A stretch of 64,000 bases of DNA from Polytrichum commune (lineage: Eukaryota; Streptophyta; Polytrichopsida; Polytrichales; Polytrichaceae). A model generated the notes under the pieces. That model ran no database searches. It saw only the letters and a list, made by a program, of their open reading frames with translations, and was not told the origin of the DNA. Each line of letters starts with the position of its first letter. Position 1 is the stretch's first letter. The stretch covers positions 7,254,501-7,318,500 of the forward strand of contig OX485805.1 of the NCBI GenBank assembly GCA_950295325.1, read 5' to 3'. Position numbers and translations under genes: made by a program. Of the stretch, positions 43,834 through 64,000 are shown piece after piece.

Positions 43834-43940
43834 TGTCGTGTAAACTAAGATCGTTAAACACAACAGATCGAGTGTCGTTGTCAACATCAATTAGCAAAAT
43901 AAAATAACAAACTAAAATGCTAAACAACCACCTCTTCAAG
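43834..43940. repeat. 107-bp direct repeat flanking the 3' LTR (outer copy)
   Basis: It starts TGTCGTGTAAACTAAG and ends CACCTCTTCAAG. It differs by one base from 44375-44481. It abuts the outer edge of the LTR at 43942 with one base between. See the matching inner copy. Confidence 0.9.
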
Positions 43941-43941
43941 A

Positions 43942-44372
43942 TGAGGGTTTCTCTTTCCAAGCTTAAGAAACTAAAATGTCTCCTTACAAAGCTTAAGAAA
44001 CTCTAAAATTCACACACAAGAGTCAAGCTATTTCTCACTTCACGAAGGGAGAATCCAAGAGTGCAAGTGGTGGAGAAAGAATGCAAAGGCTTTACTCATA
44101 ATCTACTACACCATAGCCATGAGAAAGCAACAACAAGCTCTCTCTCTTTCAAAACACACTCACAAGACTTGACTTGACAACAATGGCAATTCAAGAGGCC
44201 TTCCTCTCCATACAACCCCAATCCTATGTGGAGTTCATCCATGGAGTGGATGAACAACTAACTAGGACTCCCAATGGAGTCCGTTATTCATCCCAACACA
44301 CATGGACTCCTAATGGAGTCCATTTACTCCTAAATTGACGTAACTTAGCCCCCGATGTCACCTCACATGACA
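43942..44372 (-). repeat. 3' LTR of the minus-strand element
   Basis: 431 bp, in element orientation from TGTCATGTGAGG to GAAACCCTCA, with the TG...CA ends usual for LTRs. It is more similar in several diagnostic places to the LTR of the plus-strand element at 59499 than to its own 5' LTR. It contains the 16-base self-complement of the primer site. No polypurine tract lies directly upstream; a G-rich AGTGGGGGC lies just beyond the adjoining 107-bp repeat. Confidence 0.9.
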
Positions 44373-44374
44373 GC

Positions 44375-44481
44375 TGTCGTGTAAACTAAGATCGTTAAAC
44401 ACAACAGATCGAGTGTCGTTGTCAACATCAATTAGCAAAATAAAATAGCAAACTAAAATGCTAAACAACCACCTCTTCAAG
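44375..44481. repeat. 107-bp direct repeat flanking the 3' LTR (inner copy)
   Basis: It lies inside the element, between the LTR and a G-rich tract that resembles a polypurine tract (AGTGGGGGC on the minus strand, just beyond 44481). It differs at one base from 43834-43940 (TAGCAAAC against TAACAAAC). Far longer than a normal target duplication. Confidence 0.9.
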
Positions 44482-44817
44482 TGCCCCCACTAGCAGATAA
44501 CGAGCCCCTCCAATCGGCTAGGAACAAACACACTCATCGGTAGAGTTGTTGAACATGATGAAGTTGTTGCTACATCTATACATATTTAATTGGGTAGTAG
44601 TAATCGAAGGAATTAAACTCGTGATTGACAAAATAATCCAAGAACTGTAGGCTGGGTGCAATGTGAGCCCCATCCTTAATCGTCTTCAACAATTAATGTT
44701 GAATTTTTGGATAACTCTTTCAATGTGGTCTTAATGTGATTTTCAATCCCATAAAATTTCCAACCAACTAAATAACAACTTCACCACTAAAACATGTGGT
44801 AAACATCCACAAAATTC
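44482..44817 (-). other. 3' non-coding part of the element after pol
   Basis: About 335 bases between the pol stop codon and the 107-bp repeat. AT-rich, no conserved frame. In element orientation it ends in the G-rich AGTGGGGGC run, a plausible plus-strand primer site. Confidence 0.5.
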
Positions 44818-47800
44818 TCAATCATGACCATTAACGGCCACGGAATGAGAAGCTTTCCGACAACGAGGACAAACCCAGTTGCCAGAAGGAAGAGTCAAAA
44901 GGGGAGGTGTCAAACATGCCATGTGCCATCCACGTTGACATTGGTCGCACAATAACATTGTTGCAGCTCCTTTCTTCTCTCCACAAACATAACAAGGCAG
45001 ACCCTGTGGTACAACCGCCAACTCGGGATGCACAGAGCCGTCGATGGGAAGGTGACATGGAGCACAATTCTTTGAATGCTCACAACATTCCCGTCCATCC
45101 TTGCCTTCAAGCAATAATATACCACTTGGCAAGACATCTTTTACCCGCAAAATCGTGCGCCCAGCCTTGACATCCAATGTCGTAGGCGCCTCCCGTTGCA
45201 AGTAAACATAATTCCCTTTGGAAAATCTACGAACCTGAGGTCGATAAGCTCCACTGCGGATCCGGGCATACCGTAATGTATCACGATGTTGAGCAATATT
45301 TAAGTTATCCATAGCCATAGGCATGGCCTTTTGGAAGAACGCTGCTCGGTCATGAAGACATTGAGCCCAAACATCTGGATCATCCAAGTTTACCACGGGA
45401 GCCAATTTCTCTCGCACCGAGCTAGATAAAATTGGTTCCCGTCCATACAAGAGTTGGTAAGGACTATAGGATGCCAAAGATGCTTGCCTGTTGAAACGAT
45501 AACCCATTGCTATCCATGGTAACATCAAGTCCCAATCGCGATGGTTGCCATGAAGCAATCCATACTTCTGCAAACCGCGCTTAACCGTCTGAACAACTCG
45601 TTCAGCTAAGCCATCTGCCTCAGGGTGATCTCTGGAAGTTGTCCGATGATCAATCAAAGCCTTGGTACACAAAGCTTCGAAAGATCCAAAAAATTCTCTC
45701 CCTTGATCCGTCAACACCTCTGCAGGTGCTCCAAACCGTGCCAAAACTCGATCAAGAAATGCCATAGCCGCCAATTCTGAGGAATTTTGCGGAAGAGCCA
45801 CGAGTTCAATCCACTTACTAAAATGCTCCACCATCACAAGTACATACTTTGCCCCTCGTGGAGTGATAGTAAGCGGTCCGGCAAAATCCAAAGACCAACG
45901 ATATCCCAAGCCCATAATAGGTAAAGACTGAAGTTGAGGTGATAAAGTATTAAAACTTGACCTGACCCGGTCACATACTTCACACCTAGAAATATAAGTG
46001 GCAACCTGTTGATACATACCAGTCCACCAATATTGGTTGCGCAACATAGAGTGCGTCCTTCGCACTCCAAAATGTCCAAGCTCCTCGTGCACTTGCCGCA
46101 CCAAAGAAGCTCTTTGATCTGGCCTTGGAACGATGCGCCTCGTTCCGTTTGGCCACACACGAAATAACAAGCTGTTTGCCCAACGAAACCTTGTTATCCG
46201 GTGACTAACTCTATCTCGCTCCATAGCAGATAGTCCAAGAGGAAATATCCCTTGTTGAAGTTTGTGCAAGACCGCCTGGTCTTCCATCACATCACTAACA
46301 ACGAGAGATTTATCAACCTCCTCATCTTGTTCTTCCACAAGGATCTCAGCAGCCAATCCCGACATCATTGTGAGATATGTGGCAGCATGCCAACCCGGCA
46401 CTGCCTCACGATCACAATCTCCATGCCACCTGGCTCCAGTTAAATCCTCATCTGAAAGACTTGGATTGCGAGACAATCCGTCTGCATCCAAGTTGGCAAT
46501 TCTTGCTCGGTGAACAACTTCAAAATCATATTCCTGAAGTAACAATGCCCACCTAGCAAGTTTCCCGGTGAGCTTATCTGATTCCATAAGCCATTTTAAA
46601 GGCTGATGATCAGTCACCAAAGTAAACTTTTGCCCATACAAATAAGGTCGAAAATGTGCAATGGCCCAAACGGCCGCCAAGGCCTCGCCTTCATAAGAAG
46701 AATAATTAGATTCAGCACTATTATTGCTTCTAGATGCATAAGCCACCACATATTCCTTTCCTTCTTCATCTTTCTGTGTCAATACCGCTCCCAATCCCAC
46801 TGCACTCCAATCCGTGTGCAATTGAAAAGCTCTAGACACATCCGGGCGTCGAAGCACTGGCGCTGAACCGAGCCTCTGCTTCAATGTATCAAATGCATGT
46901 TGTTGTTCCCGACTCCAAATCCATGGTTGGTCTTTCCCCGTGAGAATGGTAAGAGGTTTGGCAATCAAACTAAAGTTTTTGACAAACCTCCTATAATAAT
47001 TTGCCAATCCTAGAAATGCACGAAGCCGTGGTACATCACTAGGTGCGGGAATTTTGTGCAAAGCATCCACCTTCGCCTGTTGCACACCAAGACCGCCATG
47101 AACAATCATGTGGCCTAAATAGGGCAATTGATCATGGAAAAACTTACATTTTCCATGATGTAAACGGAGTCCCCACCGTTGAAGTCGTTCAAATACCGCT
47201 TGCAAATGTCTCACATGATCTTGTGGACTATTACTAAAGATGATAACATCATCAATGTAACATCTAGCAAACGACAAACCAGCCAATAATTGGTCCATCA
47301 CCCGCTGAAATTCAGCTGGTGCATTCTTGAGACCAAATGGCAAAAATTTCCAATGATAAAGTTGATCATTGCCATCTTTATCAATTCCCCAAAATGCGGT
47401 CTTCACCCGATCACCTAACAACAAAGATAATTGGTGATAACCAGACCTCAAATCCAGAGTGCTGAAGATTCTAGAAAATCCCAGTGCATCAAACAACTCC
47501 TCCGGCATCGGCATTGGATATCGATCCGACTTGGTCTTGCGGTTGACTGGACGATAATCACCACACATCCGTTTTTCCGTCCAGTTGCCAAAGATATCCT
47601 TCTTTGACGGCATAACCGTGGCACAAGCATACTCTCCATTGGAGAGTTCAATCAATTCCGCTGCCAATAACTCTTGACATCGAGTTTGAACACCCAACCT
47701 GTCAGATGTACTAAGTCTGTACGGCCGTCTGAAAATAGGGTGGTCGTCCTCAAGTTGAATACGAACATGTTTACCTTTATATCCTTCAAGATCATGAAGA

Positions 47801-47961
47801 CTAAAGGCAAAACAATTACGGTAAGAGCGAATAAATGCCCGTACCTTTCGTGCTTCGGCACCAGTAAGCTTTGGCCCCACTTCAATTGGCCAATCGTCAA
47901 ACTCCGTGGTTTCCTTCTTCATAGAAGGATTGCCACTTGGTGCCAGCACAGCCTGTGATTG
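44818..47961 (-). CDS. pol: Pol: reverse transcriptase, RNase H, integrase, C-terminal PHD finger
   Basis: An open frame of 1,047 codons follows an in-frame TAG at 47964-47962. It has no ATG at its start, so it is expected as part of a polyprotein. Numbering from the GTG at 47949, RT spans about 75-270 with YIDD at 231-234 and LPFGLKNAP before it. RNase H spans about 370-490, with D380, E420 and D447 visible. The integrase zinc-binding HHCC is H621, H626, C656, C659. The integrase core is D688, D748, E783 with the canonical 35-residue spacing. A PHD finger closes the protein at 986-1030: C986, C989, C1001, C1004, H1009, C1012, C1027, C1030. Related chromoviruses carry a chromodomain in this position. 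All catalytic residues are present. Neighbours are the linker and methyltransferase in the same frame upstream. Confidence 0.92.
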   Translation of the reverse strand, partial: QSQAVLAPSGNPSMKKETTEFDDWPIEVGPKLTGAEARKVRAFIRSYRNCFAFSLHDLEGYKGKHVRIQLEDDHPIFRRPYRLSTSDRLGVQTRCQELLAAELIELSNGEYACATVMPSKKDIFGNWTEKRMCGDYRPVNRKTKSDRYPMPMPEELFDALGFSRIFSTLDLRSGYHQLSLLLGDRVKTAFWGIDKDGNDQLYHWKFLPFGLKNAPAEFQRVMDQLLAGLSFARCYIDDVIIFSNSPQDHVRHLQAVFERLQRWGLRLHHGKCKFFHDQLPYLGHMIVHGGLGVQQAKVDALHKIPAPSDVPRLRAFLGLANYYRRFVKNFSLIAKPLTILTGKDQPWIWSREQQHAFDTLKQRLGSAPVLRRPDVSRAFQLHTDWSAVGLGAVLTQKDEEGKEYVVAYASRSNNSAESNYSSYEGEALAAVWAIAHFRPYLYGQKFTLVTDHQPLKWLMESDKLTGKLARWALLLQEYDFEVVHRARIANLDADGLSRNPSLSDEDLTGARWHGDCDREAVPGWHAATYLTMMSGLAAEILVEEQDEEVDKSLVVSDVMEDQAVLHKLQQGIFPLGLSAMERDRVSHRITRFRWANSLLFRVWPNGTRRIVPRPDQRASLVRQVHEELGHFGVRRTHSMLRNQYWWTGMYQQVATYISRCEVCDRVRSSFNTLSPQLQSLPIMGLGYRWSLDFAGPLTITPRGAKYVLVMVEHFSKWIELVALPQNSSELAAMAFLDRVLARFGAPAEVLTDQGREFFGSFEALCTKALIDHRTTSRDHPEADGLAERVVQTVKRGLQKYGLLHGNHRDWDLMLPWIAMGYRFNRQASLASYSPYQLLYGREPILSSSVREKLAPVVNLDDPDVWAQCLHDRAAFFQKAMPMAMDNLNIAQHRDTLRYARIRSGAYRPQVRRFSKGNYVYLQREAPTTLDVKAGRTILRVKDVLPSGILLLEGKDGRECCEHSKNCAPCHLPIDGSVHPELAVVPQGLPCYVCGEKKGAATMLLCDQCQRGWHMACLTPPLLTLPSGNWVCPRCRKASHSVAVNGHD

Positions 47962-48300
47962 CTAGTCCGTGGAGAGGGCAACACCTTTGCCCCCATCATC
48001 TGTACTTGAATCCAAATGCGTATCCTCTCCACTACAATTAGTTTGTGTAGCTAAATAGCTACCCACATATGAAGTATCACCAAGAAATAGAAGTGGAAAC
48101 ATTTTATGGGCCTCCAACTTCCCAAACTCTTGGTCCAAAGCCGAAAAAACACGTTGGGCTCGAAGCTCTTCTGCAACATGAAGTTTCAAAGGAAATAATC
48201 CCTCGGTGTCATTGACCTCAATGTGATCCTTGGATTGCGGCTCCATTGCCCCCTGACCATTGTTCTCTGCCCTCAGAGTAAGCAATTGGTCATCCATACG
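47962..48300 (-). CDS. Linker region between methyltransferase and pol, role unknown
   Basis: It lies in the same frame as both neighbours, between TAA at 48303-48301 and TAG at 47964-47962. The first ATG at 48297 gives 111 residues (MDDQLLTLRAENNGQGAMEP at the start). It is acidic and polar (SSTDDGG near the end), with one more hydrophobic stretch (HKMFPLLFLGDTSYVGSYLA). I recognise no domain. It may be a spacer removed by the protease, or the N-terminal part of the RT protein. Its terminating TAG is followed by CAATCA, which fits the CARYYA rule for stop-codon readthrough. Confidence 0.5.
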   Translation of the reverse strand, partial: RMDDQLLTLRAENNGQGAMEPQSKDHIEVNDTEGLFPLKLHVAEELRAQRVFSALDQEFGKLEAHKMFPLLFLGDTSYVGSYLATQTNCSGEDTHLDSSTDDGGKGVALSTD

Positions 48301-49449
48301 TTATTGAGCAGCAAGACAAATTCCAATTATCCACACAATGCTATTAAGATCCATAGCTTGCCCCAATAGGAAACGTCTCTGACCTTCCTGAAGCCCGTGA
48401 GCAGCCGTGGTACCTGTAAGAAAACCCATGGCGCGTTCCCGCTCATCTGCCGTAGGCTCCTCATAAGTTTGGGATTTTGAATCCCAAACCATGCCAGGTC
48501 CACGAGATCGAAATGCAAAAGACTGTGGATATGTCACAAAAGTAAGTAGTGCACCTCTCGGAATTCCCACCTTGTTAATTAATGCAAATGGCAAGGTGTC
48601 ATCCTGGGTAACTGCCAAGGAAACACGATGATCATCTAAAATGTCATCCACCTTGCGATCCATAAGGCGGGGAATGCGGGAAATCGCCGCTGAAACCCGA
48701 GGTGATACCAAGTTGGTCCAAAACCAACGAGGCCGATGAGCAAAGGATCCCAAAGATGCAGCATCTAGAAATGTTGGAGTACCCAGAATTTGGTTAATGT
48801 ACTCACCATCCTTCACCACTTTGTACCGGGTATCACCCAATAATGGTACATTTTCGAAAATGTACCCTGGCGAAGTTGATTGGTGGGTAAACCACCATTG
48901 CGTCAATCGCATCAAATCCGCAAACAAACTAGACCTAGGATCATCCAATCCTTGGCCAGTTCCTGCCCGCGAATGGCCTTGACAAGGCCATCCTGCAATA
49001 ATCAAATCCACGTGGCCCAACCTTCTCAAATCCTCATCACTAATCATAGTGACATCTTGAGGAAGTTGACCACAACATCCATGAATGGCAGAGGCTGACA
49101 ATTGTGCGGGGTATCTCAACAACAATTGTTGGATGTGGTGTCGGACGGCTCTGTTGGCTGCATACCCATTGTCCACATGAATATATCGCCAAACTGTAAT
49201 TCCAGCTTCCAACACTGCCGCCAAACCTGTGCCAATGCCTCCAAAGATCTCCACAAGGACAATACCTTCAGGTGATGGTTGCCAACGAATGGGTTGAGCA
49301 AAAGAAAATGAGGATGAAGTTGGAGGTGCCTCTCCAAGCTTCAAATCCGCTACAATGTGTCGACAATGGTCGGATAACTCCTTAGGAGTTCGCCATGGTG
49401 GAGGTGGATCCTTGAAATGTGGAGCAGGAATTTGAAAAGATGCTACAAA
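48301..49449 (-). CDS. Retrotransposon-encoded cytosine-5 DNA methyltransferase
   Basis: The frame is open for 382 residues from just after a double stop (TAA-CAA-TAA). No ATG precedes the catalytic domain, so expression as part of a polyprotein is likely. Numbering from the in-frame TTG at 49344: motif I is EIFGGIGTG (32-40), binding AdoMet. Motif IV is GWPCQGHSRAG with the catalytic Cys121. Motif VI is FENV (163-166) with Glu164. Motif VIII is HRPRWFW (203-209). The last part, ADERERAMGF and LLGQAMDLNS, corresponds to motifs IX/X. The order I-IV-VI-VIII-X is not permuted, unlike plant DRM enzymes, and the short target-recognition region recalls Dnmt3-type enzymes. It would transfer methyl groups to C5 of cytosine in DNA. 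No chromodomain, BAH or UBA domain is present. All key residues look intact. Confidence 0.88.
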   Translation of the reverse strand, partial: FVASFQIPAPHFKDPPPPWRTPKELSDHCRHIVADLKLGEAPPTSSSFSFAQPIRWQPSPEGIVLVEIFGGIGTGLAAVLEAGITVWRYIHVDNGYAANRAVRHHIQQLLLRYPAQLSASAIHGCCGQLPQDVTMISDEDLRRLGHVDLIIAGWPCQGHSRAGTGQGLDDPRSSLFADLMRLTQWWFTHQSTSPGYIFENVPLLGDTRYKVVKDGEYINQILGTPTFLDAASLGSFAHRPRWFWTNLVSPRVSAAISRIPRLMDRKVDDILDDHRVSLAVTQDDTLPFALINKVGIPRGALLTFVTYPQSFAFRSRGPGMVWDSKSQTYEEPTADERERAMGFLTGTTAAHGLQEGQRRFLLGQAMDLNSIVWIIGICLAAQ

Positions 49450-49455
49450 TTATTG

Positions 49456-49761
49456 TTATGCCGTATTACAAGTGTAGTCCATTGTTTCCTCCAATAAAAC
49501 TGGAGCACAAGGCAAATCTGCAACTGAACAGCTGCAACCAAACATTGCCTCCGCAACCATAGTCATAGCAGTGGCTGCAAATGTGACGGGAATAAATACC
49601 TTCCTGCCATCTCCAGTGGACCATCCCGGTTTAATCCATGCCTCTTCCGTCCAATTATCCAAACCAAAGCCAAGTGGGTAAAGAGCTTGCTGACCAACAA
49701 GTATATCATAGTTGGTAGCATAGAGGTGCCTTGGTGTAACCTGTTGCACGTTCAGTGTCCC
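49456..49761 (-). CDS. C-terminal part of the retroviral-type protease region
   Basis: It lies one frame off gag, overlaps its last ~56 bases, and shares the frame of the methyltransferase. It has no ATG. It contains ATNYDILVGQQALYPLGF and AWIKPGWSTGDGRKVFIPV, which match the part that follows the DSGA active site in plant gypsy-like gag-protease proteins; the Gly-rich DILVGQ strand closes the protease fold. It ends at TAA 49458-49456 followed two codons later by another TAA. Either translation shifts frame here, or a deletion separated the two halves of the protease; the same arrangement occurs in the second element. Confidence 0.65.
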   Translation of the reverse strand, partial: GTLNVQQVTPRHLYATNYDILVGQQALYPLGFGLDNWTEEAWIKPGWSTGDGRKVFIPVTFAATAMTMVAEAMFGCSCSVADLPCAPVLLEETMDYTCNTA

Positions 49762-51988
49762 CTACTGAAGTCACAATAGTGAATGGACAAGGATCCAAGC
49801 TTGCTGGCGTTAATCCAAGACTGTCAGCAAGTCCTTTGCCAATCATAACCGGTTGAGCACCGGAATCCATCATAACTCTCAGTGGTGTAGCACGGATAGT
49901 AGGCATATCCGTGCGTGAAACGACAAACAAGGATTTGTCGTTCACCAGCCGTACAACTCCAGGTTGCAAATTATGCCGTTCGCGAGCAGGCCTTGCAGAA
50001 ATGTCTGCAAGGTATGCCGCTCCCGCCGCATAATTCGAAAATGACGTATCCACTGCTGAAATTGATGATGGAGGAATATCAGTTTGCTTACCAAAAGCAA
50101 TGATCGCCGCATCCGCAAGACTCGCTCGCAAATTGGCTAAGTCCTCCACCTCCTCAGCCACAGGTACGTCAACCACAGCTTGGGATACTTGAAGGGATGG
50201 CAAATCCACCTTACCTTCTAACATTCTCCCAGCTAAATGAAAAACTGCAGCAGGCTTGAAATCCGAAGCCATAAATTCTGAACCCGAGAAAATTGGCATA
50301 TGGAGAATTTTATATGCCAATGCCTGCGTAACATCCTTCGAGATGGAATCCCCATCTCTCAAAGGTACAGGGTTTTTAGCCCCAACAACAGTGGTGTCTA
50401 CCAATCCAAATGAAAGAGGTAAACATGCTTGACCAATTTGATCAGCTGGTCCGGCACGGCGAGGATGTAGCACCTCGTTGCTACCACCACTCGTGGAAGC
50501 CACCGCATCTGCCAATGTTTGTGAGCGAGTAGAAGCCGCCGCCACCACCTCTCCAGCTGCTCCAAACATATACATGTCCGAACCCGAGGTGCCAGTACCC
50601 ACATGCGGCTCAGAAATTTGAGCAAAAGATGCAGAAGATTTGAGCTTTTGCTCAAGCTCTGCCACCTTAGCCTCAAGACTCTGCTCCCTTGGAGACTTTC
50701 CAGTGACATAACTGGCAGGCCGCATCTCAGGATGAAGTTGGAAACAATGATCCACATCGTGATTAGTGCCACCACAATGGTTACATTTCAATTGTCTCTT
50801 CTTAGAATTGTCCCCTGCCTTTACTGATTCTATCTTTTGTTTTAATTTTCCCAAAGGCTGAGTTTTCTTCTTCTTAGGACAATTGGGATCATTTTTCGAA
50901 TGACCAGCTTCTCCACAACCCCAACAATGCAAAATCCTTTGCTCCTTCACGGGTTGAGTCTCAGCTAAACTACTAGTAGCTGTGACAATTCTTCTTGATT
51001 TCGTACTTTCTGTCATCCAAGATACCATGTCTGTGGCATCATGTTGACAGAGAGCCCGATCACATCTCTCAACCACGGCAAACGCTTGTGCAAGCGTAGC
51101 TCTGCCTTCGTAGTCGAGGATAATCCGAGGTGATGCCAACTCAAGTAGCCGCTTGTCAATCTTAGACAAAAAGATTTTGACAAGCTGACTCTCAGCAAAA
51201 ACACCTCCCGACTCAACAGCAAAGCGTGCGAGTCGCGTATACATGGTCCGTGGAGTGTCATCCTTCTCTCGGCGGAAATCCTGAATGCGCTGCATCTGGT
51301 CTCGCCGAAATCCACCATACTCCACCTCCAAATGTGCGACAAATTCAGCAAGGGGATTAAATGGAGGTGGTGGACCAACAGCCGTCAATGCTGCCTGTGT
51401 AGCACGTGCCACCCGTGAAAGGGTTGCCGTGCTACTGCTAGCCACCATTGGCCCAAGTGCCAGTTCTTTGTCCTTAGACTCCTCCGGCGATTCCTCCTCC
51501 TTTAAGGTGGGTGGAGCTAAGGTAGCAACCGCCCCATCTTTAAGGGCTGAAATAAGCTCAACCCGAGCCTCCCAATACTGCTCCACCTCCCGAAGTTGTC
51601 GCTGATGACCCTCTGTCCAGCGTTCATAAGTTTGGAGTGCCTCATACTCCAAATGTTGAGGCAGAAGCTCAAAGGCATACCAATCATTGAAATTGGAAGA
51701 CCTTTGACGCTTCTCCTTAATCCAGGTGCGAAACCGGAGTTTCCAGTCGGGCAAGGAAATGCCCCCAGCTCGACCTGAGAACCGATCACGCACTGAATTG
51801 TGGCGATCGTCCTCCATTTCGTCGAACGTGCCGACACTCCAAATCCGAAGCCTACTAGTAGTGTCCAACGCCGAAATAGGCTCAAAAGCCTCGTTGGTAT
51901 CTACCTCTGGCTCAAGATTTGTGGTATGCACGTCCTCCAAGTAATCTGGTGATGGAGATCGATAATATCGGCTCCTAGTTTGCACCAT
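49706..51988 (-). CDS. gag: Gag-protease (N-terminal protease part)
   Basis: A 760-residue intact frame from ATG at 51988. Residues ~80-320 are helix-rich and correspond to the retrotransposon gag region (YGGFRRDQMQRIQDFRREKD and LARFAVESGG). Two nucleic-acid-binding zinc knuckles follow: C355, C358, H363, C370 (unusual 6-residue last spacing) and C402, C405, H410, C415 (classical CX2CX4HX4C). Residues ~436-452 may form a short coiled coil (EAKVAELEQKLK). A long stretch, ~455-690, has no motif I know. At 703-726 is VRVMMDSGAQPVMIG-type sequence with the Asp708-Ser-Gly active site of a retroviral aspartic protease. Gag forms the particle; the protease matures the polyprotein. It is identical in sequence to the gag of the plus-strand element. 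Confidence 0.9.
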   Translation of the reverse strand: MVQTRSRYYRSPSPDYLEDVHTTNLEPEVDTNEAFEPISALDTTSRLRIWSVGTFDEMEDDRHNSVRDRFSGRAGGISLPDWKLRFRTWIKEKRQRSSNFNDWYAFELLPQHLEYEALQTYERWTEGHQRQLREVEQYWEARVELISALKDGAVATLAPPTLKEEESPEESKDKELALGPMVASSSTATLSRVARATQAALTAVGPPPPFNPLAEFVAHLEVEYGGFRRDQMQRIQDFRREKDDTPRTMYTRLARFAVESGGVFAESQLVKIFLSKIDKRLLELASPRIILDYEGRATLAQAFAVVERCDRALCQHDATDMVSWMTESTKSRRIVTATSSLAETQPVKEQRILHCWGCGEAGHSKNDPNCPKKKKTQPLGKLKQKIESVKAGDNSKKRQLKCNHCGGTNHDVDHCFQLHPEMRPASYVTGKSPREQSLEAKVAELEQKLKSSASFAQISEPHVGTGTSGSDMYMFGAAGEVVAAASTRSQTLADAVASTSGGSNEVLHPRRAGPADQIGQACLPLSFGLVDTTVVGAKNPVPLRDGDSISKDVTQALAYKILHMPIFSGSEFMASDFKPAAVFHLAGRMLEGKVDLPSLQVSQAVVDVPVAEEVEDLANLRASLADAAIIAFGKQTDIPPSSISAVDTSFSNYAAGAAYLADISARPARERHNLQPGVVRLVNDKSLFVVSRTDMPTIRATPLRVMMDSGAQPVMIGKGLADSLGLTPASLDPCPFTIVTSVGDTERATGYTKAPLCYQL

Positions 51989-52199
51989 AAAATAATCACT
52001 TGAGTACCTGCAACTATCTACAAGGTAATGGCAACCTGCACCTGTTGCGGGCTATCTAAATGGCAATCCCTTGCCAAATGCCAAGTGTTTATGCCCCCAG
52101 AATTCCAAAATTGTGCAAAGGTTTGAGATTGGTAATTAAAATTAAAAATCAGCGTTGAAAAGGCTCATTTCCAAGGTGATTATGGACTCCAATCAACAA

Positions 52200-52600
52200 A
52201 CTAAGTGCACCAATGGACTCCTAGGAAGATTTCACACAAATTAGGCTCAAATTTCACTCTGTTCAGAGTTAATTTGCTCCCAAAAACAAAAATCAGCGTT
52301 GAAATTAATAATTTCAGCAATGATTTTGAATTCCAATCAACAATCCAATTACACCATTGGATTCCTTGGCAAATTTCACACAAGATAGGCTCAAATTTCA
52401 CTCCGTTCGGAGTTAATTTGCTCCCAAAAACAAAAATCAGCGTTGAAATTAATAATTTCAGCAATGATTTAGAATTCCAATCAACAATCCAATTACACCA
52501 TTGGATTCCTTGGCAAATTTCACACAAGATAGGCTCAAATTTCACTCCAATCGGAGCTAGTATGCCCCCAAATTTGAACCTCAAAGTTTGTGAGAATTGG
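52200..52600 (-). repeat. 144-bp tandem repeats in the 5' leader
   Basis: The phrase CCAATTACACCATTGGATTC recurs at 52345 and 52489, exactly 144 bases apart, with a third divergent unit (CACCAATGGACTCC) at 52208. The unit also contains TTTCACACAA(A/G)-TAGGCTCAAATTTCAC and a CAAAAACAAAAATCAGCG run. The plus-strand element has one unit fewer (60749-61010). Confidence 0.85.
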
Positions 52601-53198
52601 ATGCCAAGTTTGAAAGGTGAAAGTAAAAATGTGAAAAAAATAAAATAAAATAAAATAAAAATATTTGTTTTAATTAAACAAAACAAAAACAAAAACAAAA
52701 ACAAAAACAAAAATAAAAAAATAAAAAACAAGGGTAAGGGCTTACCTTACCTGCCTGCCAGGGCCTAGCTGGCGCCCGCCCGCCCGCCCCCGGCCCGGGA
52801 TTTGCCGCCCCCGGATTCAGAATTGGAGCTCCAAGAGCTCCAAGAGCTCCAAGAGGGTCCGGTGAGCTCCGGATCCGTCCGGAGCTCAACCAAAATTAAA
52901 ACTAAATCGGATTTTGATTGTGGTTTTTGTTTGTATTTAAATTAAACTTTGCTTCACAATTTGCAAGCAAGAAAATGTGACTTGAGAATCATGAAACTAA
53001 ATGGAATCTCAAGATTCAACCATCAACAATTGAAGAAAATACAAGAGACAACAAAAGAAAAATGGGAAGATTTCTCTCAAAATTTTCTTGAGGGTTGCAA
53101 GAAATGACGAACTAAGCTTTCAAACACTTGTATCACTCATTTACTCTCATTACTGGGCCATTCTAGCTCAGAAATACAACCGAAAATGAGAAATTAGA

Positions 53199-53214
53199 GC
53201 CATTGTTGTCAAGT
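53199..53214 (-). other. Primer-binding-site candidate of self-priming type
   Basis: In element orientation the 16 bases ACTTGACAACAATGGC begin one base after the LTR ends. The 5' LTR holds the exact reverse complement, GCCATTGTTGTCAAGT, at 53461-53446. No TGG-initial tRNA-complementary site is present at the junction. This is the layout used by Tf1-type elements, in which the 5' end of the RNA folds back and primes reverse transcription. Confidence 0.65.
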
Positions 53215-53215
53215 A

Positions 53216-53646
53216 TGAGGGTTTCTCTCTCCAAGCTTAAGAAACTAAAATGTCTCCTTACAAAGCTTAAGAAACTCTAAAATTCACACACAAGAGTCAA
53301 GCTATCTCTCACTCCACGAAGGGAGAATCCAAGAGTGCAAGTGGTGGAGAAAGAATGCAAAGGCTTTACTCATAATCTACTACACGATAGCCATGAGAAA
53401 GCAACAACAAGCTCTCTCTCTCTCAAAACACACTCACAAGACTTGACTTGACAACAATGGCAAGTTAAGAGGCCTTCCTCTCCATACAACCCCAATCCTA
53501 TGTGGAGTTCATCCATGGAGTGGATGAACAATTAACTAGGACTCCCAATGGAGTCCGTTCCTCATCCCAACACACATGGACTCCTAATGGAGTCCATTTA
53601 CTCCTAAATTGACGTAACTTAGCCCCCGATGTCACCTCATGTGACA
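53216..53646 (-). repeat. 5' LTR of the minus-strand element
   Basis: 431 bp, TGTCACATGAGG to GAAACCCTCA in element orientation. It differs at about a dozen sites from the 3' LTR at 43942-44372. A short palindrome (TGTCACATGAGGTGACA) forms its very start. No convincing TATA box was seen. If the RNA starts at the self-complementary segment, U3 would be about 185 bp. Confidence 0.9.
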
Positions 53647-53750
53647 TGCCAATAAGAATGAGAATGCTACAGTCCATTTACTCCTAAATTGACGTAACTT
53701 AGCCCCCGATGTCACCTCATGTGACATGCCAATAAGAATGAGAATGCTAC
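53591..53750. repeat. Perfect 80-bp tandem duplication spanning the LTR/flank junction
   Basis: 53591-53670 and 53671-53750 are identical: each contains the last ~56 bases of the LTR plus 24 bases of flanking DNA (TGCCAATAAGAATGAGAATG and on). The unit was therefore duplicated after the element inserted. Confidence 0.95.
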
Positions 53751-56700
53751 ACTACATATTGTATTTAGTGTCATTTACTATTTGGATCTACACAATGTCA
53801 TATTTTACTATTATTGATGTGACTCATTACCAAGTAAAGATGTTAATGTTCTGCAATGTCCAACAACCAATTTAACCTTTGTTGGCCCCAAAAGAGATAT
53901 ACAGTAAATATTTATAGCATTGCATAGTCTCAAATAATATAGTATGTGACATTGAATACAATATTTAGTGTAGTAAAATTAAAGCTTAACAAATCTCTAG
54001 AAGTATAGATGGTGAAAATTACCAAACAATGTCAGTCAACATATATGTTGCAATTTATTCTTTTGAGATGATTATTATATACGGAATTGTAATGGTACAA
54101 TGTCAATTAAATTTTCATATAGTACTTGTATGTAATATAGCATTTTACATTATTTCTAATGTAACTTTAACTATTCGCTAAAAATTTTTAGTGGAGTTGG
54201 ATTACAAAATATTAGATGTTTGTTGAATAAGACATGGATGGATGACAAGGATGATAGGTTTTATTGGTGACGGGAGAAGGTTTGAATCTCTTGAGGTTTG
54301 GGGTTGATTACCAATGCTTCTTATGTTGCCCTTATGTCACAATGGTGATGGGTTTTCTTGTCAAAGCTCATTGTTGGGCGGGGATTGTGAGGTGTTAGGG
54401 TACATTGAGCATGTTGTAGATCTCAATTCAATCGTAACCTCCAAGGAGGGACAATAGTTTCAACCTCACGTTTGGATAAATTGAAAGTTTTAGAAAGCTA
54501 GAGGAAGGCACATGACTTGTGTGCAAGATTCTAGCTTTCCTAGAAATTGTTATGAAATTTCTACTCAAATTGTGTGATATTTTGGTTTGTGTTCTTGAGA
54601 ACACATCAAGAATGCAGAGTGACATTATGCATGCTTGGCATCTGGTTCAACATGGTAATGTGTAAGTAATATGTTGATTTTAGGCCGAGTGGTGTACAAC
54701 ATGATTATGTCATAATTAATATATTGTTTCCATATAAAAATATTTCTAATTAACTTTAGTATAATCTGACGTGTATAGATGAAGACATAAAAAATAATGT
54801 AATTTTCAATGTAATAAGTGGAAAATGTGTCAATATTTCAACATTTCATTGAATTTCACATAATAATTTCGCGCTTGGAAACTTGTGATCCATGTGTGAG
54901 GTATTGCATTCTTGTACTTGTAGCCACATTAATGGCAGCCTACATGTAATGTTCAATGATCGGGGAGAACCGGCAGTTAGTTACAAATGAACCAGTTGAG
55001 TTTGAGAAATAACTGGTTGAAGTTCAAGACTGCAAATGAACTAGTTGAGTTTGAGAAATAACCAGTTGAAATTCAAGATTGCAGGAAAATTATCAATCGT
55101 TTTAGAGGAATTTATAGAAGAATATACCCCAATTTCATAAAGGAAAACCGGAGGATGTCAACATGTAACCGGTTGGACTTGCAACCACTAGGATCTCAAC
55201 CAGTTATGCCCAAAAATCTCCCAATCATTGGTAATGTTCTTTAGACTTAACCGTAAATGTCAATCAAAGAGGGATGAAACCGTGGGTTCGATCCTTATTT
55301 GAGGAAACTTTCTATTCTTAGCTCGTTGGCTCGTCATACATTGGTACCTATTTTGAAAGTAGGGTGAAACTTTTGGGACAATTTGTTTTCACCACTCAAA
55401 CTTTGAGAGGGTTTTAGATCTAAAATAGGGTTTGTGGATGGTATCCGTTGTTCTTAATCCCTGATGGGTCTATGCAAGGGTAGCTTGGCCCACCCATCCT
55501 AGTAGGACAAGCTAGAAAATTGTTTTTAAATAGCCCGATACCACTCTTTGTTGATGGTTTTTTAAGCATTAAGAAAACTTGGGTGACTTTGTGTTAATTC
55601 TCATAAACTCTGGGTTTGGGACTATACCCATGATTTCATCTCATTTACTTTACAAATAACTCTAATAGGTCCCCATATGATACCTAGTTTACGCATGTGT
55701 ATACCCTGGGGGTGCGCCTTTCATTAAAAACCAAGAACCATGTGCGTTCACAACATACACTAAACCCCCCTATATATAAGTTTTTTGGTAAAATTAAGTA
55801 ATGCACATTCAATTTCAATCATAAAAATACAAGTGACAATATGTATACATAAAAATTTACATTCATATTTAGTCATTAACATATGTGTACAAATAAGGTT
55901 TTGGATATTACTGAATTCCTATCATACATATAATGTGAAACCCTAGCATTCCTGGATATAGTCATCCCCCAAATGTAACTCATAAGCATCTAAGTCTACA
56001 ATGTATGTCATAGAGGCTAATGCTATTATTTTTTCTATATCTATCATCAAATGATTTGTAAGATCGTAAGTCCACTTATTGTTGGTTCCTTTTTGACTAC
56101 CAACATAAACCAATTTCCATGCTTGATCCAATTTGTTGCACACGTCGGAGGTTTACCAATGATACGAAAATGATTGGGAATCAACACCTTCACAATTTTG
56201 ATGCCGCCTATGATTTAATGATGGCATCAACCACCCGCAACCACCTAGATCAACCACAAAGAACCGCCATAAGGAAGCGCTTGCCGTTCGTCTTGCAACC
56301 CTATGCAAGAAGTGGCCTTGTTCTCGGCTCAACCACCCTTGCCTCTTCCACACATACATGGATGAGAAAATGATTCATCTTGGTTTCATCCAATATTTTG
56401 TACTTATCCCATCGAGTCTAGTGACCCCTATCATACAATTACAAATATTATATATTTCTAGAGGTCCTCCATACATGTACAAAATACAAGTTCTAATTTG
56501 TTTAGCATGTGTATATGTAGTACACAAAAGTTCAAATTAATACTTTTTATGTGCACTCATGTATACTCATACGTGTCATGAAAGGTGCACCCCCTGGGGT
56601 GTATACCAAACATGAAGCTAAGTGGACACCCAAGGAGCCACTTGTTTATATTGATAAGGATCAACAACAAGGTTGCATGGGTGGTGAACACATTTGTTTT

Positions 56701-59498: not shown

Positions 59499-59929
59499 TG
59501 TCACGTGAGGTGACATCGGGGGCTAAGTTACGTCAATTTAGGAGTAAATGGACTCCATTAGGAGTCCATGTGTGTTGGGATGAATAACGGACTCCATTGG
59601 GAGTCCTAGTTAGTTGTTCATCCACTCCATGGATGAACTCCACATAGGATTGGGGTTGTATGGAGAGGAAGGCCTCTTGACTTGCCATTGTTGTCAAGTC
59701 AAGTCTTGTGAGTGTGTTTTGAGAGAGAGAGAGCTTGTTGTTGCTTTCTCATGGCTATGGTGTAGTAGATTATGAGTAAAGCCTTTGCATTCTTTCTCCA
59801 CCACTTGCACTCTTGGATTCTCCCTTCGTGGAGTGAGAGATAGCTTGACTCTTGTGTGTGAATTTTAGAGTTTCTTAAGCTTTGTAAGGAGACATTTTAG
59901 TTTCTTAAGCTTGGAGAGAGAAACCCTCA
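59499..59929 (+). repeat. 5' LTR of the plus-strand element
   Basis: 431 bp, TGTCACGTGAGGTGACA at the start and AAACCCTCA at the end. It includes the self-complementary segment at 59684-59699. In diagnostic sites (for example the TTATTCATCC type and the AACTAACTAGG type) it groups with the 3' LTR of the other element rather than its 5' LTR. Confidence 0.9.
59684..59699 (+). other. LTR segment complementary to the primer site (candidate self-primer)
   Basis: GCCATTGTTGTCAAGT here is the exact reverse complement of ACTTGACAACAATGGC at 59931-59946. By analogy with Tf1, the RNA 5' end would lie at or near 59684. That start is inferred; no TATA box is evident in the 40 bases before it. Confidence 0.6.
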
Positions 59930-59930
59930 T

Positions 59931-59946
59931 ACTTGACAACAATGGC
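59931..59946 (+). other. Primer-binding-site candidate, plus-strand element
   Basis: Sixteen bases beginning one base after the LTR's terminal CA, fully complementary to 59684-59699. The same pair is intact in the other element although the surrounding leaders have diverged. Confidence 0.65.
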
Positions 59947-61173
59947 TCAAATTTTTCATTTTTGGTTGTATTTCTGAGCTAGAATGGCCCAGTATTGAGA
60001 GCAAATGAGTGATACAAGTGTTTGAAAGCTTAGTTTGTCATTTCTTGCAACCCTCAAGAAGATTTTGAGAGAAATCTTCCCATTTTTCTTTTGTTGTCTC
60101 TTTGTGTTTTCTTCAAGTGTTGATGGTTGAATCTTGAGATTCCATTTGGTCTCAAGATTCTGAAGTCACATCATTCTTGCTTGCAATTTGTAAAAGCAAA
60201 GTTTAATTTTTTTTTTAAAATTTACAAACAAACACAAACCAAACTTAAAATCCGAATTTTTTTATTTTTTTTGTTTTTTGTTTATTTTTATTTTTATTTG
60301 AGCTCCGGAGCTCCACGGACACTCTTGGAGCTCCTGGAGCTCCTGGAACTCCGATTCTGGATACCGGGCGGCACCACCCAAACCGGGTCGGGGGCGGGCG
60401 GCCCAGGCTCCGGGCCCCCCAGGCCAGCTAGGCGGGCGGGCTCCGGCCAGGCCCAGCTGGCCCCCCCACCAACCGCGGCTGCAGGCCCTTATCCCCAAGG
60501 TAAGCCTCCTTTTATTGCCTTAAGTTAAGTTAGTAAGGTTCAATTAATTAAGCTAAGTTACTTAATTAAGTTAATTAATTAGGTAATTAGGATCAGTTAA
60601 TAAATTTAGGTTAATTAAGTTAATTAGATTAAGTTAATTAAGTTAATTAATTTTTTTAATTTTTTTAATTTTTTTAATTTTTACTTTCACTTTCAAATTT
60701 GGCATTTCATTGTCACAAACTTTGAGGCTCAAATTTGGGGGCATACTAGCTCCGATTGAAGTGAAATTTGAGCCTATTTTGTGTGAAATTTGCCAAGGAA
60801 TCCAATGGTGTAATTGGATTTTTGATTGGAAGTCAAAATCATTGCTGAAATTGCTAATTTCAACGCTGATTTTTGTTTTTGGGAGCAAATTAACTCCGAA
60901 CAGAGTGAAATTTGAGCCTAATTTGTGTGAAATCTTCCTAGGAGTCCATTGGTGCACTTAGTTTGTTGATTGGAGTCCATAATCACCTTGGAAATGAGCC
61001 TTTTCAACGCTGATTTTTAATTTTAATTACCAATCTCAAACCTTTGCACAATTTTGGAATTCTGGGGGCATAAACACTTGGCATTTGGCAAGGGATTGCC
61101 ATTTAGATAGCCCGCAACAGGTGCAGGTTGCCATTACCTTGTAGATAGTTGCAGGTACTCAAGTGATTATTTT
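59947..61173 (+). other. 5' leader of the plus-strand element
   Basis: It has a GC-rich segment (60300-60490, GGAGCTCC repeats and C/G runs), then a TTAATTAAG-rich stretch (60520-60660) absent from the other element, T-rich runs, then the 144-bp tandem units at about 60749-61010. The frame at 60127-60528 translates this low-complexity DNA and is not a gene. The last ~210 bases before gag are identical to the other element. Confidence 0.6.
60749..61010 (+). repeat. 144-bp leader tandem repeats, plus-strand element
   Basis: CTCCGATTGAAGTG at 60749 and CTCCGAACAGAGTG at 60893 are 144 bases apart and open matching units with GTGAAATTTGAGCCTA. The second unit passes into a partial third. There is one full unit fewer than in the minus-strand element. 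Confidence 0.8.
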
Positions 61174-63456
61174 ATGGTGCAAACTAGGAGCCGATATTAT
61201 CGATCTCCATCACCAGATTACTTGGAGGACGTGCATACCACAAATCTTGAGCCAGAGGTAGATACCAACGAGGCTTTTGAGCCTATTTCGGCGTTGGACA
61301 CTACTAGTAGGCTTCGGATTTGGAGTGTCGGCACGTTCGACGAAATGGAGGACGATCGCCACAATTCAGTGCGTGATCGGTTCTCAGGTCGAGCTGGGGG
61401 CATTTCCTTGCCCGACTGGAAACTCCGGTTTCGCACCTGGATTAAGGAGAAGCGTCAAAGGTCTTCCAATTTCAATGATTGGTATGCCTTTGAGCTTCTG
61501 CCTCAACATTTGGAGTATGAGGCACTCCAAACTTATGAACGCTGGACAGAGGGTCATCAGCGACAACTTCGGGAGGTGGAGCAGTATTGGGAGGCTCGGG
61601 TTGAGCTTATTTCAGCCCTTAAAGATGGGGCGGTTGCTACCTTAGCTCCACCCACCTTAAAGGAGGAGGAATCGCCGGAGGAGTCTAAGGACAAAGAACT
61701 GGCACTTGGGCCAATGGTGGCTAGCAGTAGCACGGCAACCCTTTCACGGGTGGCACGTGCTACACAGGCAGCATTGACGGCTGTTGGTCCACCACCTCCA
61801 TTTAATCCCCTTGCTGAATTTGTCGCACATTTGGAGGTGGAGTATGGTGGATTTCGGCGAGACCAGATGCAGCGCATTCAGGATTTCCGCCGAGAGAAGG
61901 ATGACACTCCACGGACCATGTATACGCGACTCGCACGCTTTGCTGTTGAGTCGGGAGGTGTTTTTGCTGAGAGTCAGCTTGTCAAAATCTTTTTGTCTAA
62001 GATTGACAAGCGGCTACTTGAGTTGGCATCACCTCGGATTATCCTCGACTACGAAGGCAGAGCTACGCTTGCACAAGCGTTTGCCGTGGTTGAGAGATGT
62101 GATCGGGCTCTCTGTCAACATGATGCCACAGACATGGTATCTTGGATGACAGAAAGTACGAAATCAAGAAGAATTGTCACAGCTACTAGTAGTTTAGCTG
62201 AGACTCAACCCGTGAAGGAGCAAAGGATTTTGCATTGTTGGGGTTGTGGAGAAGCTGGTCATTCGAAAAATGATCCCAATTGTCCTAAGAAGAAGAAAAC
62301 TCAGCCTTTGGGAAAATTAAAACAAAAGATAGAATCAGTAAAGGCAGGGGACAATTCTAAGAAGAGACAATTGAAATGTAACCATTGTGGTGGCACTAAT
62401 CACGATGTGGATCATTGTTTCCAACTTCATCCTGAGATGCGGCCTGCCAGTTATGTCACTGGAAAGTCTCCAAGGGAGCAGAGTCTTGAGGCTAAGGTGG
62501 CAGAGCTTGAGCAAAAGCTCAAATCTTCTGCATCTTTTGCTCAAATTTCTGAGCCGCATGTGGGTACTGGCACCTCGGGTTCGGACATGTATATGTTTGG
62601 AGCAGCTGGAGAGGTGGTGGCGGCGGCTTCTACTCGCTCACAAACATTGGCAGATGCGGTGGCTTCCACGAGTGGTGGTAGCAACGAGGTGCTACATCCT
62701 CGCCGTGCCGGACCAGCTGATCAAATTGGTCAAGCATGTTTACCTCTTTCATTTGGATTGGTAGACACCACTGTTGTTGGGGCTAAAAACCCTGTACCTT
62801 TGAGAGATGGGGATTCCATCTCGAAGGATGTTACGCAGGCATTGGCATATAAAATTCTCCATATGCCAATTTTCTCGGGTTCAGAATTTATGGCTTCGGA
62901 TTTCAAGCCTGCTGCAGTTTTTCATTTAGCTGGGAGAATGTTAGAAGGTAAGGTGGATTTGCCATCCCTTCAAGTATCCCAAGCTGTGGTTGACGTACCT
63001 GTGGCTGAGGAGGTGGAGGACTTAGCCAATTTGCGAGCGAGTCTTGCGGATGCGGCGATCATTGCTTTTGGTAAGCAAACTGATATTCCTCCATCATCAA
63101 TTTCAGCAGTGGATACGTCATTTTCGAATTATGCGGCGGGAGCGGCATACCTTGCAGACATTTCTGCAAGGCCTGCTCGCGAACGGCATAATTTGCAACC
63201 TGGAGTTGTACGGCTGGTGAACGACAAATCCTTGTTTGTCGTTTCACGCACGGATATGCCTACTATCCGTGCTACACCACTGAGAGTTATGATGGATTCC
63301 GGTGCTCAACCGGTTATGATTGGCAAAGGACTTGCTGACAGTCTTGGATTAACGCCAGCAAGCTTGGATCCTTGTCCATTCACTATTGTGACTTCAGTAG
63401 GGGACACTGAACGTGCAACAGGTTACACCAAGGCACCTCTATGCTACCAACTATGA
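61174..63456 (+). CDS. gag: Gag-protease of the plus-strand element
   Basis: A 760-residue frame identical to the minus-strand gag at 49706-51988: gag core, zinc knuckles at 355-370 and 402-415, and the protease active site Asp708-Ser-Gly. Complete from ATG to TGA. Identity at every residue, together with identical silent positions as far as I compared, implies a very recent common origin or conversion of this part. Confidence 0.9.
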   Translation: MVQTRSRYYRSPSPDYLEDVHTTNLEPEVDTNEAFEPISALDTTSRLRIWSVGTFDEMEDDRHNSVRDRFSGRAGGISLPDWKLRFRTWIKEKRQRSSNFNDWYAFELLPQHLEYEALQTYERWTEGHQRQLREVEQYWEARVELISALKDGAVATLAPPTLKEEESPEESKDKELALGPMVASSSTATLSRVARATQAALTAVGPPPPFNPLAEFVAHLEVEYGGFRRDQMQRIQDFRREKDDTPRTMYTRLARFAVESGGVFAESQLVKIFLSKIDKRLLELASPRIILDYEGRATLAQAFAVVERCDRALCQHDATDMVSWMTESTKSRRIVTATSSLAETQPVKEQRILHCWGCGEAGHSKNDPNCPKKKKTQPLGKLKQKIESVKAGDNSKKRQLKCNHCGGTNHDVDHCFQLHPEMRPASYVTGKSPREQSLEAKVAELEQKLKSSASFAQISEPHVGTGTSGSDMYMFGAAGEVVAAASTRSQTLADAVASTSGGSNEVLHPRRAGPADQIGQACLPLSFGLVDTTVVGAKNPVPLRDGDSISKDVTQALAYKILHMPIFSGSEFMASDFKPAAVFHLAGRMLEGKVDLPSLQVSQAVVDVPVAEEVEDLANLRASLADAAIIAFGKQTDIPPSSISAVDTSFSNYAAGAAYLADISARPARERHNLQPGVVRLVNDKSLFVVSRTDMPTIRATPLRVMMDSGAQPVMIGKGLADSLGLTPASLDPCPFTIVTSVGDTERATGYTKAPLCYQL

Positions 63457-63706
63457 TATACTTGTTGGTCAGCAAGCTCTTTACCCACTTGGCTTTGGTT
63501 TGGATAATTGGACGGAAGAGGCATGGATTAAACCGGGATGGTCCACTGGAGATGGCAGGAAGGTATTTATTCCCGTCACATTTGCAGCCACTGCTATGAC
63601 TATGGTTGCGGAGGCAATGTTTGGTTGCAGCTGTTCAGTTGCAGATTTGCCTTGTGCTCCAGTTTTATTGGAGGAAACAATGGACTACACTTGTAATACG
63701 GCATAA
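63401..63706 (+). CDS. C-terminal protease part, plus-strand element
   Basis: Plus-one frame relative to gag with a 56-base overlap; no ATG. Same content as 49456-49761 (ATNYDILVGQQALYPLGF and on) and the same terminal TAA-CAA-TAA. That both elements share the frame change and the stops means these features predate the split of the copies, or were spread by conversion. Confidence 0.65.
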   Translation, partial: GTLNVQQVTPRHLYATNYDILVGQQALYPLGFGLDNWTEEAWIKPGWSTGDGRKVFIPVTFAATAMTMVAEAMFGCSCSVADLPCAPVLLEETMDYTCNTA

Positions 63707-63712
63707 CAATAA

Positions 63713-64000
63713 TTTGTAGCATCTTTTCAAATTCCTGCTCCACATTTCAAGGATCCACCTCCACCATGGCGAACTCCTAAGGAGTTATCCGACCATTGTC
63801 GACACATTGTAGCGGATTTGAAGCTTGGAGAGGCACCTCCAACTTCATCCTCATTTTCTTTTGCTCAACCCATTCGTTGGCAACCATCACCTGAAGGTAT
63901 TGTCCTTGTGGAGATCTTTGGAGGCATTGGCACAGGTTTGGCGGCAGTGTTGGAAGCTGGAATTACAGTTTGGCGATATATTCATGTGGACAATGGGTAT
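63713..64000 (+). CDS. Start of the methyltransferase frame, plus-strand element (partial)
   Basis: Opens after TAA at 63710-63712 and runs off the window. It begins FVASFQIPAPHFKDPPPPWR, a Pro-rich lead-in, and reaches motif I (EIFGGIGTG) and HVDNGY. Identical to the other element across the visible part. The catalytic motifs beyond motif I lie outside the window. Confidence 0.8.

What the first reader, a model, noticed from the sequence alone, without database searches (positions are those of the whole stretch)
48301..49449. Ty3/gypsy retrotransposon with its own cytosine-5 DNA methyltransferase
A complete set of C5-methyltransferase motifs (I EIFGGIGTG, IV PCQ, VI ENV, VIII RPRWFW, late LLGQAMD) lies between protease and RT in one retrotransposon, in the same frame as pol. 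The motif order is non-permuted and Dnmt3-like, so it is not simply a captured plant DRM. I recall that methyltransferase-bearing retrotransposons have been reported from dinoflagellates and a charophyte alga; an example in what looks like a land plant, combined with the other features here, would extend that. The element could methylate its own copies or target regions, so mobility and silencing may be coupled. That last step is inference.
Basis: partly seen in the sequence, partly recalled or inferred. Interest (0 to 1): 0.92.

Follow-up and report, generated by a model that had tools for sequence, protein, structure and literature searches.

The report
Plant retrotransposon carrying a DNA methyltransferase
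A jumping element present in at least a hundred copies in what looks like a moss genome carries its own DNA-methylating enzyme, apparently made together with its capsid protein, plus a histone-reading finger and an unusual arrangement of end repeats; the kind was known from one green alga and from dinoflagellates, and this one adds several new parts.

Summary
In detail: 48304-49449 (minus strand) encodes a complete, non-permuted C5-methyltransferase inside a Ty3/gypsy-type element (43834-53646). It is not a one-off: the host genome gives 108 scored matches to it (a lower bound) and holds a diverged subfamily. The separate ORF in the window is local decay. In 10 of 20 loci read the frame is open from 1.5 kb upstream through the enzyme to a shared stop, and in one subfamily copy zinc knuckle and enzyme lie in one 1364-aa frame. 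The shared stop is TAG-CAATCA in 20 of 20 loci; RT-RNaseH-integrase-PHD follows in frame. So the enzyme is probably made with Gag-Pro and Pol by leaky-stop readthrough. The ends are split direct repeats (B - ORFs - A-gc-B-A), as in DIRS elements, but with a DDE integrase and 4-bp target duplications (13 of 15 perfect). Selection conserves the enzyme (Ka/Ks 0.115 for one pair across subfamilies). The closest known element is KnitGypsy-Dnmt3 of Klebsormidium. DNMT3 ancestry is unsettled. Methylation by the enzyme is not shown.

The parts
53215..53646 (-). 5' terminal repeat B1 (432 nt, starts TGTCA); no A repeat beside it
   Evidence: B at the expected 5' place in 15 of 17 fetched copies
52138..52572 (-). 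144-nt tandem repeats in the 5' untranslated region
49706..52051 (-). gag-protease ORF (zinc-knuckle-like CWGCG/CNHCG, protease DSGA)
   Evidence: (weak protease matches)
49459..49704 (-). rest of protease and linker, in the frame of the methyltransferase (frame change in this copy)
   Evidence: L189 and L177 also show a frame change further upstream
49450..49458 (-). TAA CAA TAA, stops found only in the two window copies
   Evidence: 2 of 20 loci
48304..49449 (-). C5-cytosine methyltransferase domain, 382 aa; PCQ at 48979-48987
47965..48300 (-). linker of 112 codons after the methyltransferase (TAA at 48301-48303 only in the window copies)
47956..47964 (-). conserved leaky-stop-like signal TAG CAATCA before RT
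   Evidence: 20 of 20 main-family loci; CAATTA in 4 and CAGTTA in 1 of 8 subfamily loci; 1 of 1692 TAGs in the window, both strands, is followed by CARYYA
44818..47961 (-). RT - RNase H - integrase - PHD finger ORF, 1047 aa (YIDD 47248-47259)
44860..44994 (-). PHD finger at the end of the integrase
   Evidence: PF00628 2e-10; also in one subfamily copy, 1.8e-10
44482..44493 (-). polypurine-like tract CTAGTGGGGGCA directly before A1
44375..44481 (-). repeat A1 (107 nt)
44373..44374 (-). dinucleotide GC joining A1 (ends CGACA) to B2 (starts TGTCA)
43941..44372 (-). repeat B2
43834..43940 (-). repeat A2, 3' end of the element
   Evidence: ends fixed by 4-bp duplications in other copies
59499..64000 (+). 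second copy, inverted, running past the window; its methyltransferase starts at 63713

Best explanation
A multicopy Ty3/gypsy-type retrotransposon of a streptophyte (probably a moss) makes two products from one RNA. The main one is Gag-protease-methyltransferase, ended by a leaky UAG (CARYYA context). The rarer one is the readthrough fusion with RT-RNase H-integrase-PHD. The methyltransferase is therefore made at Gag level and packed into the particle. There it most likely methylates cytosines of the element's own cDNA before integration, so that new copies arrive already marked. The integrase joins DNA at the B-start (TGTC) and A-end (GACA), sequences that lie side by side as A-gc-B inside the element; the element thus behaves as if integrated from a circular or end-joined form, with a 4-bp target duplication. 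The PHD finger probably guides the integrase to chromatin. Shown: domains, copy number, frame organisation, conserved stop, repeat layout, target duplications, purifying selection. Inferred: readthrough, packaging, cDNA methylation, circle intermediate, PHD targeting.
For: Domains. Fold. Copies: 108 matches at 86-100% identity (108 of 599 candidates scored). Frame: 10 of 20 loci open from locus start to the shared stop; one subfamily frame of 1364 aa holds zinc knuckle (17.8 bits, below its cut-off) and methyltransferase. Stop context TAGCAATCA in 20 of 20 loci; in the subfamily CAATTA in 4 and CAGTTA in 1 of 8 loci, and CAATTA in 3 of 3 longer stretches, one of them among the 8. Layout B...A-gc-B-A at the 3' end in 15 of 17 copies (one with a shortened A2), A only in 2 of 17; perfect 4-bp duplications in 13 of 15 assessable copies, 3 of 4 bases in 2; 3 of 3 subfamily elements perfect (CTCC, TACA, GAAT). 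Selection: Ka/Ks 0.115 for one pair across subfamilies. Precedent: SymbioDIRS-Dnmt3 domains methylate CG in yeast (PMC5890265 section 10).
Against: No activity, expression, particle or methylome data. In the yeast assay the Klebsormidium gypsy enzyme gave no methylation, which the authors call inconclusive. C-to-T excess in the copies occurs in CG, CHG and CHH alike, as host silencing alone would give. Close copies are weakly constrained (median Ka/Ks 0.48 over 171 pairs of 19 copies); 10 of 20 loci carry a stop before the shared one; Ks across subfamilies is saturated (2.9). 3 of 8 subfamily loci show no CARYYA stop in the stretch held. B...A copies can also arise by recombination between A1 and A2.
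Confidence: 0.5

Rival explanations
1. The methyltransferase acts on host chromatin rather than on cDNA: it methylates target regions or neighbouring genes, or interferes with host silencing, helped by the PHD finger on the integrase.
For: Writer and reader domains in one element; the discussion of PMC5890265 considers effects on the insertion site.
Against: Placement before the shared stop, with Gag-Pro, favours a particle role; PHD and enzyme sit on different sides of that stop.
Confidence: 0.2
2. The enzyme is kept for a non-catalytic or RNA-directed role, for example RNA binding in the particle.
For: Very long branch (3.4 changes per column); the Klebsormidium enzyme was inactive in yeast.
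Against: Motifs IV, VI, VIII and X are kept, and one pair across subfamilies with 59.7% shared residues has Ka/Ks 0.115.
Confidence: 0.15
3. Origin rival: the enzyme was captured from a bacterial- or virus-type DNMT3-like enzyme, not from a host DNMT3.
For: PCQ in motif IV as in the 82 prokaryotic/viral rows (partly by selection, since the scan pattern held PC or PCQ), not PCN as in DNMT3A and the host DRM; best scores to viral contigs (54.7 against 34.3 bits for a DNMT3A segment); careful tree puts it outside the DNMT3A/DRM group (95/87).
Against: Joint clade with DNMT3A (+DRM) not rejected, p-AU 0.20 and 0.27; support for its own place is weak (59/73); no plant DNMT3 was available; an earlier quick tree joined it to DNMT3A, a long-branch join that did not survive leaving DNMT3A out.
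Confidence: 0.4
4. One-off chimera or misassembly.
For: The two window copies differ at 1 of 7,516 body sites although their ends differ, and their flanking 4-mers are swapped: recombination or assembly has acted here.
Against: 108 matches spread over all seven large contigs, and a diverged subfamily of the same design.
Confidence: 0.02

Closest known systems
KnitGypsy-Dnmt3, Klebsormidium nitens (de Mendoza et al. 2018, PMC5890265)
   Same: Gypsy domain composition, Dnmt3-related enzyme in a polyprotein, repeats arranged as in DIRS elements (Fig. 4c legend), purifying selection on the enzyme.
   Different: There the enzyme is described as part of the Pol polyprotein ORF; here it lies before a conserved leaky-stop-like signal, with Gag-Pro. 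'PHD', 'readthrough' and 'target site' have 0 occurrences in that main text; figures and supplements were not seen. Sequence kinship could not be tested.
SymbioDIRS-Dnmt3, dinoflagellates (same paper)
   Same: Retroelement with Dnmt3-type enzyme and A - ORFs - B-A-B repeats.
   Different: Tyrosine recombinase there; DDE integrase and 4-bp target duplications here.
PAT/DIRS-order elements with split direct repeats
   Same: Repeat geometry.
   Different: No tyrosine recombinase among the Pfam hits of the ORFs scanned; rve-type integrase present.
Gypsy elements with chromatin-reader tails (chromodomain and Tudor elements of Ectocarpus, PMC12477816, passages)
   Same: Histone-reader domain fused behind the integrase.
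   Different: Reader is a PHD finger; one Ginger1 transposase family bears PHD (PMC2836005, passages); none reported for Gypsy in the passages read.
Readthrough signals of TMV type (UAG-CARYYA; recalled)
   Same: Context CAATCA, CAATTA or CAGTTA after UAG.
   Different: Leakiness not measured here.

Membership tests
Ty3/gypsy retrotransposons | PR-RT-RNaseH-integrase order with DDE integrase | tested here: met
   (protease match weak)
Ty3/gypsy retrotransposons | TG...CA ends and short target duplication | tested here: met
   TGTC...GACA; 4-bp duplications 13 of 15 perfect
Ty3/gypsy retrotransposons | identical full LTR at both ends | tested here: not met
   B alone at the 5' end, A-gc-B-A at the 3' end; hence 'gypsy-type pol with split repeats'
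Ty3/gypsy retrotransposons | tRNA primer-binding site after the 5' repeat | tested here: inconclusive
   similar but not identical sequence follows B1 in both subfamilies; by eye and recall no known tRNA end
KnitGypsy-Dnmt3 kind | gypsy domains plus C5-methyltransferase in a polyprotein | tested here: met
KnitGypsy-Dnmt3 kind | DIRS-like repeat arrangement | tested here: met
KnitGypsy-Dnmt3 kind | common ancestry with the Klebsormidium element | not testable with these tools
   no Klebsormidium sequence held; protein database switched off
DIRS/PAT elements | tyrosine recombinase | tested here: not met
   no such hit in the ORFs scanned; rve present
DNMT3 family | non-permuted C5-methyltransferase fold | tested here: met
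DNMT3 family | PCN in motif IV (recalled as typical; seen in DNMT3A and host DRM) | tested here: not met
   PCQ in the window copy and in 8 of 8 subfamily loci (whose script looked for PCQ)
DNMT3 family | tree placement with DNMT3 | tested here: inconclusive
DRM | permuted motif order | tested here: not met
   motif order I to X; host DRM is permuted
Leaky-stop (UAG-CARYYA) genes | conserved stop in that context before an in-frame ORF | tested here: met
Leaky-stop (UAG-CARYYA) genes | measured readthrough | not testable with these tools
   needs a reporter assay

The most novel reading that the evidence does not exclude
A gypsy-type element of a land plant packages a cytosine methyltransferase, taken from a bacterial- or virus-type enzyme and made at Gag level, to mark its own cDNA. 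It integrates by a DDE integrase acting on joined ends (A-gc-B) of a circular form, guided by a PHD reader, so that two-repeat circles give B...A-gc-B-A and one-repeat circles give B...A insertions.
Probability: 0.2. Interest if true: 0.9.

Novelty: new variant of a known kind. Interest (0 to 1): 0.7.

Why it matters
[quoted passage not shown] A high-copy, selectively maintained family in a probable bryophyte would overturn that. It gives a tractable plant host for asking what a retroelement gains from writing the mark that silences it. The conserved stop bears on stoichiometry: the enzyme seems to go with Gag. Split repeats with a DDE integrase and clean 4-bp duplications are a natural test of how end-joined retroelement DNA can integrate.

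Tried and rejected
Chimera or misassembly of the family: rejected by copy number. Captured DRM: rejected by motif order, PCQ and 23% identity. Stand-alone methyltransferase gene with its own start: rejected, first Met after motif I, frame open far upstream in 10 of 20 loci. An early idea of a programmed +1 frameshift in protease and readthrough of TAA CAA TAA: rejected; TAA CAA TAA occurs only in the 2 window loci of 20, and 16 of 20 have no frame change in the stretch held (L177 and L189 do). Window LTR age: not used, since the two window copies were altered by recombination.

Led nowhere: Rfam and tRNA scans of the window (none); viral-contig scans with the single proteins (no confirmed relative); AlphaFold without relatives (pLDDT 37); a genome paper for the host (none recognised in the 15 of 112 listed; contigs C1-C7 of 406.07 of 407.81 Mb suggest n = 7, which fits some mosses by recall). 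In the structure comparison DNMT1 and DRM are not among the 50 rows shown; that excludes nothing.

Rows dropped or chosen: c176 and c177 have no B at the expected 5' place and are left out of the duplication count. One search used 18 rows (second window copy and 17 of the 18 loci L175-L192), ungapped. One search oriented 17 of 20 loci; the other three were read. The alignment for AlphaFold and trees took 82 of 131 suitable relatives found, themselves from scans cut at 80 of 280 and 80 of 457 loci; the careful tree used 34 rows. One search lists each locus in both orientations, because a palindromic stretch let the wrong strand pass the filter; I counted the correct strand only.

Full report

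Copies. The genome that holds the window has 407.8 Mb; contigs C1-C7, whose lengths are printed, sum to 406.07 Mb. The methyltransferase gives 108 scored matches of 86-100% identity, a lower bound that includes the two window copies. A search with a DNMT3A segment gave 148 matches, whose best rows belong to a diverged subfamily. One subfamily enzyme is 59.7% identical to one main-family enzyme over 382 aa, with pS 0.734, pN 0.269 and Ka/Ks 0.115; Ks is saturated. Among 19 close copies the median Ka/Ks is 0.48 (171 pairs). So the enzyme seems conserved over the long run, while young copies decay.

Frame organisation. In the window the ORF is cut off by a frame change in protease, TAA CAA TAA before it and TAA after it. 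The latter two occur in 2 of 20 loci, the window's own. In 10 of 20 loci the frame is open from the start of the locus, 1.5 kb upstream, to one stop about 340 nt after the enzyme; the other 10 carry further stops. That one stop is shared: TAG CAATCA in 20 of 20 loci (17, 3). In the subfamily 4 of 8 loci show TAG CAATTA and 1 of 8 TAG CAGTTA. All three fit CARYYA, the context I recall for leaky stops of the tobacco mosaic virus type. Of 1692 TAGs in the window on both strands only this one is so followed. One subfamily frame of 1364 aa holds a zinc knuckle (weak) and the methyltransferase, and the next frame of 1047 aa holds RT, RNase H, integrase and PHD. I infer that Gag-Pro-methyltransferase is the main product and Pol the readthrough product. 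Domain order in the other main-family copies was read from frames, not by Pfam.

Ends. Repeats B (432 nt) and A (107 nt) are arranged B - ORFs - A-gc-B-A. Of 17 copies whose ends I fetched, 15 have A-gc-B-A at the 3' end (one with a shortened second A) and 2 only A; 15 have B at the expected 5' place, none with A beside it. Target duplications of 4 bp are perfect in 13 of 15 assessable copies and match at 3 of 4 bases in 2. In three subfamily stretches the repeats have other sequences; two show the same layout (B 333-334, A 106) and the same CACGACA-GC-TGTCACG junction, the third ends as B...A; duplications are CTCC, TACA and GAAT. In one of the three both repeat pairs are identical, so it is young. 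A G-rich tract ending GGGGGCA lies directly before A1 in the main family and in the subfamily copy looked at. Read as reverse transcription, A-gc-B would be the LTR; yet integration happens at B-start and A-end. A circle or end-joined form cut at A-gc-B explains both the common form (two repeats) and the B...A form (one repeat). Recombination between A1 and A2 explains the second form as well.

The two window copies. They are inverted and differ at 1 of 7,516 body positions, while their 5' parts differ by several per cent. Copy 1 is flanked by GGCA and TAAG, copy 2 by TAAG and TGCA. The 4-mers pair up crosswise (TAAG exactly, GGCA/TGCA at 3 of 4), as expected after an inversion by recombination between the copies; a flipped assembly is not excluded.

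Origin of the enzyme. It is not DRM: the host's DRM exons match solved DRM structures, are permuted and have PCN. Against a 166-aa DNMT3A segment the enzyme scores 34.3 bits, less than against the best viral-contig enzymes (54.7), while the DNMT3A segment scores about 100 bits with some bacterial enzymes. A quick tree joined it to DNMT3A by long branches; with DNMT3A left out it went elsewhere. A careful tree with a subfamily enzyme and host DRM added puts the retroelement pair outside a supported group (95/87) that holds DNMT3A and DRM, but a joint clade is not rejected (p-AU 0.20 and 0.27). No plant DNMT3 was at hand. Ancestry is open.

Methylation traces. Transitions at C/G sites exceed those at A/T sites about 3- to 5-fold, in CG (0.028 per site-copy), CHG (0.018) and CHH (0.019) against 0.006. 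The copies have probably been methylated in all contexts, as host silencing would do; this says nothing about the element's own enzyme.

Known work. de Mendoza et al. 2018 (PMC5890265; sections 9, 10 and 11 read whole, other passages by search) describe KnitGypsy-Dnmt3 with gypsy domains and DIRS-like repeats. A 2019 article says such transposons are absent from land plants (PMC6338049, passages). A 2025 survey mentions DNMT3 in retrotransposons of streptophytes and dinoflagellates and says DRM is restricted to streptophytes (PMC12344493, passages). Ten searches, seen as listings that were often cut, showed no report of such an element in a land plant; the library lacks most subscription papers.

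Noticed in passing
53591-53751: 80-bp tandem duplication of flank plus the first 56 nt of the element at the 5' end of copy 1.
   Followed up: partly
43834-53646 and 59499 onward: The two inverted copies share a nearly identical body and crosswise-paired flanking 4-mers, pointing to an inversion by recombination or to a flipped assembly.
   Followed up: partly
10400-12900, 34100-36900, 42100-43600: Pieces of an unidentified repeat in three places, mostly 90-95% alike.
   Followed up: no
9470-10181 and 14086-14797: Direct repeats of 300-nt pieces, 82-85% alike, 4616 nt apart.
   Followed up: no
5543-5932 (-): ORF with DUF7748, 8.9e-24.
   Followed up: no
21855-22247 (+): Weak neurobeachin-like DUF1088 match, 1.3e-4, below the curated cut-off.
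   Followed up: no
L222 (G000 C2:4699500-4707500): Host DRM gene with permuted motifs and PCN.
   Followed up: yes
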